Below are positions 26,408 to 39,309 of a stretch of 45,308 nucleotides of DNA, piece after piece. This stretch comes from a virus. Location of the stretch: the IMG/VR virus record IMGVR_UViG_3300008262_000227, positions 1 to 45,308 of that record, one strand, 5' to 3'. How positions within the stretch are numbered: position 1 is the stretch's first letter; the number at the start of each line of letters is the position of its first letter. Both the position numbers and the translations under genes were made by a program. The notes beneath the pieces are model-generated. The model ran no database searches. It saw only the letters and a program-made list of their open reading frames with translations, and was not told the origin of the DNA.

Positions 26408-26667
26408 AAATTATATTTCTTTCTCTCAAGTCTAACTTCTTTTCTCTTCAAGTCAAGTTTTTTGATTTGTTCCTCAAGTTTTTTGTTTCTCTGTTTTCCG
26501 AAATCAAAATTAAAAGCTCCAAAAGGTGACATCATATGTTTAAGATGCGAAATCTGTCTATCCAGCTTTTGTAATTTTTTAAAAATGGTCGAAGAAGCAC
26601 GACTCGAACGTGCGCCACTCATGCGTCCATGGTTGTTCTGTCCACCTAAACTATTCTTCGGTTTCAT
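26404..26667 (-). CDS. basic helical protein overlapping a tRNA-like element
   Basis: 88 codons from the ATG at 26665-26667, but codons 3-28 lie exactly on a tRNA-like sequence (26586-26660) and read as atypical Gly/Arg/Ser/Asn. If that RNA is made, translation may start at ATG 26535 (MMSPFGAFNFDFGKQRNKKL) or nearby. The C-terminal half is a Lys/Glu coiled coil (LEEQIKKLDLKRKEVRLERK). Function unknown; start uncertain. Confidence 0.5.
   Translation of the reverse strand: MKPKNSLGGQNNHGRMSGARSSRASSTIFKKLQKLDRQISHLKHMMSPFGAFNFDFGKQRNKKLEEQIKKLDLKRKEVRLERKKYNL
26586..26660 (-). tRNA. degenerate tRNA or tRNA-like element
   Basis: 75 bases on the minus strand. Acceptor CGAAGAA/TTCTTCG pairs perfectly with an encoded A-CCA end; D arm GTTT/GAAC with a GG-containing loop; T arm GCACG-TTCGAGT-CGTGC perfect. 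The 21 bases between D and T arms (AACCATGGACGCATGAGTGG plus C) do not form a normal anticodon stem, and no T33-anticodon-A37 loop is clear. Either a decayed tRNA or a tRNA mimic. GC-richer than its surroundings. Confidence 0.55.
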
Positions 26668-35981: not shown

Positions 35982-35987
35982 AAAAAC

Positions 35988-36441
35988 TGGAGATGAGGGG
36001 AATCGAACCCCTGTCCAATGAACTTTCATTTCACGATTCTTCACATGTTTGAGTATATTCAAAATTTCAGCTACCTTAAGGCAACGAAGACAAAAGGCTT
36101 TTTGGTTATACTAACCGAGTTTAATGTCTGCCTATATGAGCGTAGAGTCTCATATCACTCCACTGTTTATTCTTTATGGGACTTTACAGTATATCCCTCC
36201 CTCTGTAATTCAAAACGGATTTAGAGGATTACCGTTAGGCTTTTAAGCGGCGAGAGCGTAGGACTCTTCCTCAATGCCACCGAGAAACTCGTCAGCATTG
36301 TTGAAGATGTATTCAGCTTCGGCTAAAAGATCAGAAGTGTTATCTTCTGCATTTAGTTTTTAATCGATTTTTAAGGAGGCCATCGATTAACCTCCACATG
36401 CATCGTGGAATTAGAATTCAATGTCGAATCCTTTCATCCCC
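35988..36441 (-). ncRNA. ssrA: tmRNA (ssrA) with a predicted 35-residue tag
   Basis: 454 nt. 5' GGGGATGAAAGGATTCGACA (with the conserved GGATTCGAC) pairs with 3' CATCTCC-A to form the acceptor stem; T arm GGGG-TTCGATT-CCCC; CCA not encoded. Pseudoknot 1: GGAGG/CCTCC with TTAATCGAT/ATCGATTAA (36357-36397). Nine bases on, the ORF 36350-36243 starts at GCA and encodes AEDNTSDLL...EEESYALAA then TAA, ending with the canonical ALAA degron. About 25 residues longer than the E. coli tag. Rescues ribosomes stalled on broken phage or host mRNAs. Confidence 0.95.
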
Positions 36442-36474
36442 GTAAAATTTTCAAAGATCAAGTTTGTATATTAT

Positions 36475-36502
36475 AATTTATCAGATATTATTTTTTTGTC
36501 AA
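36475..36502 (-). promoter_or_regulatory. tmRNA promoter
   Basis: Minus strand TTGACA (36497-36502), 16-bp spacer, TAAATT (36475-36480); TATAAT follows 4 bases later. About 30 bases of leader before the GGGG 5' end. Confidence 0.55.
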
Positions 36503-36723
36503 TTGTTTTGTAATAAAAATGTCAATCTATCTATAAGAGTTTCTAAAACTTTCTTATAATCTTCCTGGCTTAAATCAAAAAGTACAGGAGTTAAATCATT
36601 CATAATATCATGAACAATTTTTCTTTTTTGTTGTTCATCGATATTTGAATCAACAAGAGCTTCACTTTCTTTTAAAATATTTTTATATAAATTTTCTAAT
36701 ACAATTTGGTCTTTATTTTTCAT
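36499..36723 (-). CDS. small KDQ-tagged protein
   Basis: 74 residues. Begins MKNKDQIVLENLYKNILKES; V-L-E at 8-10 is a near match and I-L-K-E follows. The rest is one helical, acidic domain (KIVHDIMNDLTPVLFDLSQE). Function unknown, probably capsid cargo. Its stop overlaps the tmRNA promoter. Confidence 0.7.
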   Translation of the reverse strand: MKNKDQIVLENLYKNILKESEALVDSNIDEQQKRKIVHDIMNDLTPVLFDLSQEDYKKVLETLIDRLTFLLQNN

Positions 36724-36729
36724 TTTAAC

Positions 36730-36735
36730 TACTTA
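36730..36735 (-). promoter_or_regulatory. TAAGTA candidate late-promoter motif
   Basis: Minus strand ATATAAGTAGTTAAAATG: TAAGTA 6 bases before the ATG at 36723. Confidence 0.4.
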
Positions 36736-36759
36736 TATTTTTTAAATTATTTAACCAGA

Positions 36760-36984
36760 AAGTTCTTCATTGGCTACCGTGTTTCTCTCACGTTGGACGA
36801 AGTTTACTTGTCACCCTCTGCCTAATCGAGTCTGGCGATAAGTCCGTAGTGGTTAGCTTTTTAAGAACAGCACAGCACACCATTCCCACCCGACTTATCA
36901 AATTTTAAAATCTTCAAAGAACATCCGATTTTGTATTCGTAGATGACACATCTACCCGTTGGCTTATCGGGAACCAACTATCTA
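36760..36984 (-). ncRNA. unexplained ~225-nt structured RNA candidate
   Basis: A 304-base gap (36724-37027) with no ORF and clearly higher GC. Starts a few bases after a TTGACA/TAAATTTG promoter. Visible pairings (minus strand): GTTGG/CCAAC with CCC/GGG forming an H-type pseudoknot near the 5' end; GTAGATG-TGT-CATCTAC hairpin; GATAAGTC/GACTTATC long-range helix; CGTG-AGAGAAA-CACG hairpin near the 3' end. Not recognised as RNase P, 6S, SRP or a second tmRNA. Confidence 0.6.
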
Positions 36985-36990
36985 ACATCA

Positions 36991-37019
36991 AATTTATATT
37001 ATTTTATAATAAATGTCAA
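36991..37019 (-). promoter_or_regulatory. Bacteroidota-type promoter of the structured RNA
   Basis: Minus strand TTGACA (37014-37019), 17-bp spacer, TAAATT (36991-36996) continuing TTTG: TTG-N20-TAAATTTG matches the Bacteroidota TTG/TAnnTTTG consensus. Confidence 0.65.
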
Positions 37020-37027
37020 TGTAATTT

Positions 37028-38256: not shown

Positions 38257-39309
38257 TTATGCTTTAATAGTTTTACCTAATGTAGAAATAATCGCTTTCT
38301 TGTTTGTAACAAGAACATTTTCAACAGCTGCTTCCTTTTCCGAATAATTAATAATAGAAAAGGCGTTTTGCCAATTAGCTGCTGATGCATAAACTGGTTT
38401 TAAACTACAAGCACATCCATTTTCATATACTCTAACAATTTGTTCCTTCTGTGAACCAATAGAAGGAATTCTTTGTGATGTCATTCCAATTCTATGTGTG
38501 TGATTGCACATGATAGAAGTAAACCATTTTTCAAAAAGACCTCTTGCTGAATATCCACCATGACGACGAACAACATCACCGTGCATAACAATAAAACCTG
38601 GTACGATCTCCACATAGTCTACTAATTTTGTTCTGTTCCAATCTCCGGTTGGATAAAAAACAGATTCATATGATAATTTTTCTTTAATCTCTGGAATTTC
38701 TGCAAGTTCACCAATTCTATCAGACAAATATCTCCACCATCTTCCTTCTAAACCATCACCAGAATGGTTTGAATTTGTTTCAAATATATCAGAACTATAA
38801 GAAGATGTTACATCATGCAACAATCTTAAAAATTTATGATATTCTTCTCTTTCTCTCATAAGAGAATTTCCAAATCTAATATCTTTTGGATATCTACTAA
38901 TCGAAAACATATCAAGAGTATCTCCATTTAGAATAATAGTAGATGGTTTAAGTTCTTCTATAGTCTGAAGGAAAATATCAAGAACATTCCAATCCTCTGA
39001 ACCAAAGTGCATATCACCTATAACAAGTGCATAAGGATTTGGACTTGATGTTATTTTATTTCTTACTGGAGTATCGTACTCTATTGGTGAAAGCTGTAAA
39101 ATAAAATCAACAATTTCTTCTTTAGAAGAAATAAAAGAACCAGCTTTTTCTTTTTTAAAAGCAACTGGCTTTGATCCATCACACCGCTTTCTGTCTCTAA
39201 CCCAATCCCAAACAGTTGATGGTTTGGAATCTAACATGTCTGCTATTTGACGAAAACTAAAACCATTGGAGTTTAGTTCTTTTGCTTTTTGTATTTTTTG
39301 GTTTATCAT
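38257..39309 (-). CDS. helix-turn-helix / metallophosphoesterase fusion
   Basis: 350 residues. N-terminal recombinase-type HTH: AKELNSNGFSFRQIADMLDS, then KPSTVWDWVRDRK (about 9-41). Then a phosphoesterase: LVIGDMHFGSEDW (about 94-106), IILNGDTLDMF (about 123-133), ETNSNHSGDG (about 178-187), FIVMHGDVVRRHGG (about 236-249) and SIMCNHTHRIGM (about 263-274). The GNHE position reads SNH. HTH-MPE proteins are known in phages; the role is unclear, perhaps a site-directed nuclease or phosphodiesterase. Confidence 0.8.
   Translation of the reverse strand: MINQKIQKAKELNSNGFSFRQIADMLDSKPSTVWDWVRDRKRCDGSKPVAFKKEKAGSFISSKEEIVDFILQLSPIEYDTPVRNKITSSPNPYALVIGDMHFGSEDWNVLDIFLQTIEELKPSTIILNGDTLDMFSISRYPKDIRFGNSLMREREEYHKFLRLLHDVTSSYSSDIFETNSNHSGDGLEGRWWRYLSDRIGELAEIPEIKEKLSYESVFYPTGDWNRTKLVDYVEIVPGFIVMHGDVVRRHGGYSARGLFEKWFTSIMCNHTHRIGMTSQRIPSIGSQKEQIVRVYENGCACSLKPVYASAANWQNAFSIINYSEKEAAVENVLVTNKKAIISTLGKTIKA

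What the first reader, a model, noticed from the sequence alone, without database searches (positions are those of the whole stretch)
36724..37027. Unidentified promoter-driven structured RNA of about 225 nt
A 304-base gap with no ORF, higher GC, a near-perfect Bacteroidota-type promoter (TTG-N20-TAAATTTG), a 5' H-type pseudoknot (GTTGG/CCAAC plus CCC/GGG), a GTAGATG hairpin and a GATAAGTC/GACTTATC long helix. A competing CGATAAG/CTTATCG pairing could make a switch. It sits beside a tmRNA and tRNAs and between two tagged genes.
Basis: partly seen in the sequence, partly recalled or inferred. Interest (0 to 1): 0.7.

Follow-up and report, generated by a model that had tools for sequence, protein, structure and literature searches.

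The report
Phage stable-RNA operon head with boxA
A phage gap contains the start of a non-coding RNA operon: a promoter, a folded leader carrying the same signal that bacteria place before their ribosomal RNA genes, and two small structured RNAs found only in related viruses; what those two RNAs do is unknown.

Summary
Relatives split it into three parts.

(1) A leader sits right after a TTGACA-N17-TAAATT promoter. It has hairpin P1, a covarying hairpin P2, and a pseudoknot joining the P1 loop (CCGAU) to a downstream AUCGG. The exact 10-mer GTTCTTTGAA follows; it also occurs in rRNA leaders of several Bacteroidota, as boxA. The leader family is in 25 or more viral loci. In 23 of 28 copies an RNA gene starts within 400 nt (6% at random positions). 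The strict motif occurs only twice in the window: here and just before the tmRNA.

(2) RNA-A1 (63 nt).

(3) RNA-A2 (about 81 nt), which also occurs without A1, mostly just upstream of tmRNA, with a fully swapped closing helix.

No Rfam match, no match in 50,697 phage records, and no exact-pattern match in 84,980 species genomes.

Best explanation: the head of a phage stable-RNA operon built like an rRNA operon, where pseudoknot plus boxA recruits host Nus factors so that untranslated RNAs are transcribed through. Architecture and covariation are shown; antitermination is inferred; the targets of A1 and A2 are unknown. The CCC/GGG pseudoknot and the CGATAAG switch are not conserved.

The parts
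36991..37019 (-). promoter, TTGACA (37014-37019) - 17 nt - TAAATT (36991-36996); start of transcription expected near 36983-36986
   Evidence: conserved as TTGACA-N17-TATAKT or similar in most relatives. Transcription itself not shown.
36958..36978 (-). leader hairpin P1 (36974-36978 with 36958-36962) with invariant loop UUCCCGAU
   Evidence: two pairs with compensatory changes in 22 leaders
36939..36955 (-). leader hairpin P2, GUAGAUG/CAUCUAC
   Evidence: 6-7 bp stem in 23 of 23 full-length leaders with 15 distinct arm pairs; absent in short second copies
36925..36970 (-). leader pseudoknot: loop CCGAU (36966-36970) with AUCGG (36925-36929)
   Evidence: invariant in 22 leaders; divergent copies have UCGAU/AUCGA (L070) and UCGGU/ACCGA (L072)
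36913..36922 (-). boxA, GTTCTTTGAA
   Evidence: the same 10-mer, or a one-base variant, lies in 16S leaders of Persicobacter, Hymenobacter, Prevotella, Phocaeicola and Rufibacter; only two GWTCTTTGAA sites in 45 kb
36837..36899 (-). RNA-A1 (63 nt): closing helix GAUAAGUC/GACUUAUC, inner helix with compensatory changes, invariant GUGUGCUGUGCUGUUCUUAAAAAGC in close members
36755..36835 (-). RNA-A2 (81 nt): closing helix CCAGA/UCUGG, three hairpins, invariant internal pseudoknot AUUAGGC/GCCAAU
36450..36459 (-). second boxA, GATCTTTGAA, directly before the tmRNA
35985..36441 (-). tmRNA (tag EAEYIFNNADEFLGGIEEESYALAA)
36499..36723 (-). 74-aa ORF with N-terminal tag MKNKDQIVLEN between RNA-A2 and tmRNA

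Best explanation
The gap is the head of a phage operon for stable, untranslated RNAs, laid out like a bacterial rRNA operon. A strong promoter starts a transcript whose first ~75 nt fold into a hairpin-pseudoknot leader followed by a boxA. Inferred: boxA binds host NusB-S10, and the pseudoknot next to it docks a host or phage factor (or RNA polymerase itself), so the polymerase becomes resistant to Rho and pausing and reads through long RNA that no ribosome protects. The leader's cargo differs between phages (RNA-A1/A2, other unknown structured RNAs, tmRNA, tRNAs). In the window the cargo is RNA-A1 and RNA-A2, two separately folding RNAs of 63 and 81 nt, probably cut out as stable RNAs. Their molecular targets are unknown; their company (tmRNA, tRNAs) suggests a role in translation, or in protecting translation from host attack, during infection.
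For: Shown: the modules are separable. Leader and RNA-A are 530 nt apart in L003 and about 430 nt apart in L004, with other RNAs between. The leader directly precedes tmRNA in L005/L006 and tRNAs in L048, L070, L071 and L083. A2 occurs without A1 in at least eight distinct contigs. An RNA gene starts within 400 nt in 23 of 28 distinct leaders, versus 24 of 400 random positions in the same loci. Covariation: P1, P2 with 15 arm pairs, pseudoknot in two divergent copies, A1, A2 with the closing helix swapped CCAGA/UCUGG to CUAGA/UCUAG to UUAGU/ACUAA. boxA: GTTCTTTGAA in the leader equals, to within one base, the motif in five of eight Bacteroidota 16S leaders read, and is one base from the gamma-proteobacterial consensus GYTCTTTAANA (PMC5725501). 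[ACT]TTTG[AC] follows 17 of 23 leaders versus a shuffled mean of 2.0, maximum 6. GWTCTTTGAA is found only here and before the tmRNA in 45 kb, and most sites in relatives precede tmRNA, leaders, tRNAs or RNA cassettes. E. coli rrn likewise has boxB-boxA after its promoter and again before 23S (PMC10250234). Few Shine-Dalgarno sites (3 of 31 genes) fit a Bacteroidota host.
Against: No transcript or Nus-factor data. Six of 23 leaders lack an obvious boxA directly after the pseudoknot (some have one further on; in L020 and L049 none was seen). Two leaders (L016, L049) have no RNA gene downstream and L036 has an ORF first. Chryseobacterium and Flavobacterium 16S leaders show no GTTCTTTGAA. In the window the tmRNA has a promoter-like site of its own, so A1/A2 and tmRNA may not share a transcript. 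Covariation of the pseudoknot rests on two divergent copies. The host is inferred, not known. The role of A1 and A2 is open.
Confidence: 0.6

Rival explanations
1. The leader is a 5' processing or stability element: the pseudoknot blocks 5' exonucleases or marks a cleavage site that frees the first RNA, and the TTTGA motif is only part of a cleavage or folding signal.
For: It lies at the extreme 5' end in front of stable RNAs of every kind, and its structure is more conserved than what follows.
Against: Does not explain why the motif equals the rRNA boxA of Bacteroidota, nor why the same motif recurs inside arrays and before tmRNA without the pseudoknot.
Confidence: 0.17
2. The leader is a ligand-sensing riboswitch or attenuator controlling the operon.
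For: Compact hairpin-pseudoknot with invariant loop and A-rich strand (ACAAAAUCGG), as in several small riboswitches (general knowledge).
Against: No Rfam riboswitch match up to E = 10; P2 is dispensable in short copies; no conserved terminator or expression platform follows; cargo is varied RNA genes, not one pathway.
Confidence: 0.1
3. One reading: one RNA of about 225 nt with a CCC/GGG pseudoknot and a CGATAAG/CTTATCG conformational switch.
For: Leader, A1 and A2 are contiguous in the window and in L028, L033, L035 and L046.
Against: Parts are separated by hundreds of nt in L003/L004; A2 stands alone in others; CCC/GGG and the switch sequence are not conserved.
Confidence: 0.06
4. RNA-A1/A2 are not independent RNAs but a leader of the tmRNA that helps it fold or mature, as rRNA leaders do for 16S.
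For: In most loci the order is A1-A2-boxA-tmRNA, and A2 alone also sits directly before boxA-tmRNA.
Against: In the window and L003, L026, L033 an ORF lies between; in L018 RNA-A is followed by a tRNA and by no tmRNA in view; no complementarity to tmRNA beyond chance.
Confidence: 0.15

Closest known systems
rRNA operon leader (boxB-boxA-boxC) and lambda nut sites
   Same: Position right after the promoter of an untranslated RNA operon; hairpin then boxA; boxA repeated before a second large RNA; 10-mer identical to boxA-like motifs in Bacteroidota 16S leaders.
   Different: A pseudoknot with invariant loop and AUCGG partner replaces the simple boxB hairpin; cargo is tmRNA, tRNAs and unknown RNAs; antitermination untested.
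HK022 put RNAs
   Same: Structured 5' RNA that modifies RNA polymerase (general knowledge).
   Different: put is two plain hairpins and needs no boxA (general knowledge); not compared by a model here.
T4 RNAC and RNAD
   Same: Small RNAs of unknown role transcribed from a phage tRNA region (PMC3014915, PMC9697503).
   Different: Different phage group; no boxA leader reported in what I read; RNA-A has no match in the phage records, which include T4-like phages.
GOLLD and ROOL RNAs
   Same: Phage structured RNAs near tRNA islands, function unknown (PMC12286853).
   Different: Hundreds of nt long and in Rfam; neither matched here. A1/A2 are 63 and 81 nt.

Membership tests
boxA-dependent (rrn-type) antitermination leader | boxA sequence of the likely host phylum in the nascent leader | tested here: met
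   GTTCTTTGAA at 36913-36922, same as in 16S leaders of several Bacteroidota; host phylum itself is inferred
boxA-dependent (rrn-type) antitermination leader | located just after the promoter of an untranslated RNA operon | tested here: met
   promoter; RNA genes downstream in 23 of 28 leaders
boxA-dependent (rrn-type) antitermination leader | binds NusB-S10 and suppresses Rho termination | not testable with these tools
   needs binding and readthrough assays
any Rfam 15 family (including riboswitches, RNase P, 6S, GOLLD, ROOL) | covariance-model match | tested here: not met
   no match at gathering in the window outside tmRNA/tRNA; none relevant up to E = 10 in the gap or in L003 11500-12420; only tRNA/tmRNA in ten further loci
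tmRNA / tRNA | ARAGORN or Rfam match for A1 or A2 | tested here: not met

The most novel reading that the evidence does not exclude
A group of phages, probably of Bacteroidota, carries rRNA-like operons led by a new pseudoknot-plus-boxA leader and filled with interchangeable RNA cassettes, including several unknown structured RNA families besides A1 and A2, which act together to take over or shield translation during infection.
Probability: 0.35. Interest if true: 0.8.

Novelty: new variant of a known kind. Interest (0 to 1): 0.64.

Why it matters
Phages carry tRNA arrays, yet how they transcribe long untranslated RNA past Rho is rarely asked. Here a phage appears to use its host's rRNA antitermination signal, with an added pseudoknot, as a common head for interchangeable RNA cassettes. 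That makes a direct experiment possible, and it adds at least two structured RNA families with strong covariation and no Rfam entry.

Tried and rejected
Single-sequence folding (z = -0.5 for the whole) does not discriminate. RNase P, suspected from short motifs, has no Rfam support. The exact leader core found nothing because the window's GATAAG is unique. A pseudoknot between the A1 loop GUUCUU and AAGAAC of A2 looked nearly perfect in 18 sequences, but it fails in L018 and AAGARC persists where A1 is absent (L110, L111), so it is not claimed. Antisense pairing of RNA-A with tmRNA or tRNAs is at chance level. RNA-A in bacterial genomes: none by exact core pattern; leader likewise; both scans accept exact matches only. 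Weak RNA-A hits in L013 and L069 are not counted. Leader hits below about 20 bits look like chance matches, mostly in coding sequence.

Full report
What was checked. The window is a 45,308-nt IMG/VR viral record. Rfam gives tmRNA and three tRNAs in the window but nothing in the gap. The energy of the whole transcript is ordinary (z = -0.5); only the A1 part folds better than shuffles (z = -3.7). So single-sequence evidence is weak and comparison is needed.

Modularity. The metallophosphoesterase gene at 38257-39309 led to twelve related loci. BLAST of the gap against them showed two separate matches in the closest two: the 5' part (about 76% identical) and the 3' part (92-99% identical), 530 nt and about 430 nt apart. 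Between them lie other structured RNAs and, in L004, two tRNAs. In L005/L006 the 5' part sits directly before the tmRNA. The gap is therefore a leader plus separate RNA genes.

The leader. A pattern for its core found 26 viral loci, one of which (L047) looks like a chance coding match; a slightly stricter pattern found none in 84,980 species genomes. Twenty-two distinct copies were aligned. P1 has compensatory changes at two pairs. P2 is a 6-7 bp stem in 23 of 23 with 15 different arm pairs. The P1 loop CCGAU and the downstream AUCGG are invariant in the set. Divergent second copies in related phages keep the pairing with other letters: UCGAU/AUCGA (L070) and UCGGU/ACCGA (L072). Short copies without P2 also head tRNA clusters.

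What the leader drives. Within 400 nt downstream an RNA gene (tRNA, tmRNA or recurrent cassette) starts in 23 of 28 distinct leaders, against 24 of 400 random positions in the same loci, which are themselves enriched for such genes. The five exceptions are L016, L017 (contig end), L036, L049 and L072.

boxA. Right after the pseudoknot the window reads GTTCTTTGAA. Eight Bacteroidota 16S genes on plasmid records were read upstream. GTTCTTTGAA, or GTTCTTTGAG in Rufibacter, occurs 124-176 nt before the 16S probe in Persicobacter, Hymenobacter, Prevotella, Phocaeicola and Rufibacter; Flammeovirga has GTTCTTTTGA; Chryseobacterium and Flavobacterium lack it. The published gamma-proteobacterial consensus is GYTCTTTAANA (PMC5725501). 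In the window GWTCTTTGAA occurs twice in 45 kb, expected 0.7: in this leader and 8 nt before the tmRNA, both on the RNA strand. In relatives most G[AT]TCTTTGA sites stand before tmRNA, a leader, a tRNA or a cassette. This parallels E. coli rrn, with boxB-boxA after the promoter and again before 23S (PMC10250234).

RNA-A1 and RNA-A2. The core of A1 was found in 21 viral loci and A2 in 35. For A1 plus A2, 99.9% of cells pair and four pairs change on both sides. For A2 alone, with divergent members, five or six pairs change on both sides and 0-1 of 500 shuffles reach this. Its closing helix exists as CCAGA/UCUGG, CUAGA/UCUAG and UUAGU/ACUAA. A2 without A1 stands before boxA and tmRNA in several contigs. 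A1 and A2 are thus separate cassettes, one nucleotide apart in the window. RNA-A has no match in 50,697 phage records.

Host. Only 3 of 31 genes have a Shine-Dalgarno-like site, the promoter also fits the Bacteroidota type, and boxA matches that phylum. Bacteroidia ribosomes are known to ignore Shine-Dalgarno sequences (PMC9976891). The host is inferred, not shown.

Mechanism. Shown: architecture, conservation, covariation, association with RNA genes, boxA identity. Inferred: Nus-factor recruitment, antitermination, processing into stable RNAs. Unknown: what A1 and A2 bind. T4 RNAC and RNAD are precedents for small RNAs of unknown role made from a phage tRNA region (PMC3014915, PMC9697503); GOLLD and ROOL are larger ones near tRNA islands (PMC12286853).

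Limits. Collection scans accept exact patterns, so distribution counts are lower bounds. Contigs are fragments. Sequences within a set are related, so pair counts are not independent events.

Noticed in passing
L003 11700-12240, L018, L021, L023, L025, L029, L030, L031, L034, L037: Other recurrent RNA cassettes behind the leader, each closed by its own terminal helix and without Rfam match where tested: B1 (ACCCGCC..GGCGGGT, 82 nt), B2 (TACCAAG..CTTGGTA, 103-117 nt), C (TTTGGTA..), D (AACTGG..CCAGT, 187 nt, 5 pairs with double changes), E and others.
   Followed up: partly
L018 13860-13940, L031, L036, L110, L111: A second recurrent element (CTCTGCCAGAGGCAGGAAACCTACAGAGGCTTGACCGNTGAGCCAGC..AGCGGTAATGATCTTTGA) in several arrays, often between leader and first RNA, ending in a boxA.
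   Followed up: no
L070, L071, L083, L094, L097, L099: Another short element (ACCTTGTAAAA..ATTGGAATAGATTTTTGATA) recurs before tRNAs.
   Followed up: no
window 8625, 36723, 37399, 44096, 44597 (gene starts, minus strand): Five ORFs share the N-terminal tag M(K/R)(N/S)KDQILLE and then differ; the same tag starts many ORFs in relatives. Function unknown; perhaps a localisation or packaging signal.
   Followed up: no
window 26586-26660 and L110 7963-8037: tRNA-like call with a four-base anticodon gacg in two different contigs; the window copy overlaps small ORFs.
   Followed up: no
L004 8301-8418, L018 13346-13467: tRNA genes with an unusually long insert (117-122 nt in all) in or after the anticodon region.
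   Followed up: no
window 38257-39309: Helix-turn-helix (Terminase_5-like) fused to a calcineurin-like phosphoesterase, well conserved in the relatives.
   Followed up: no
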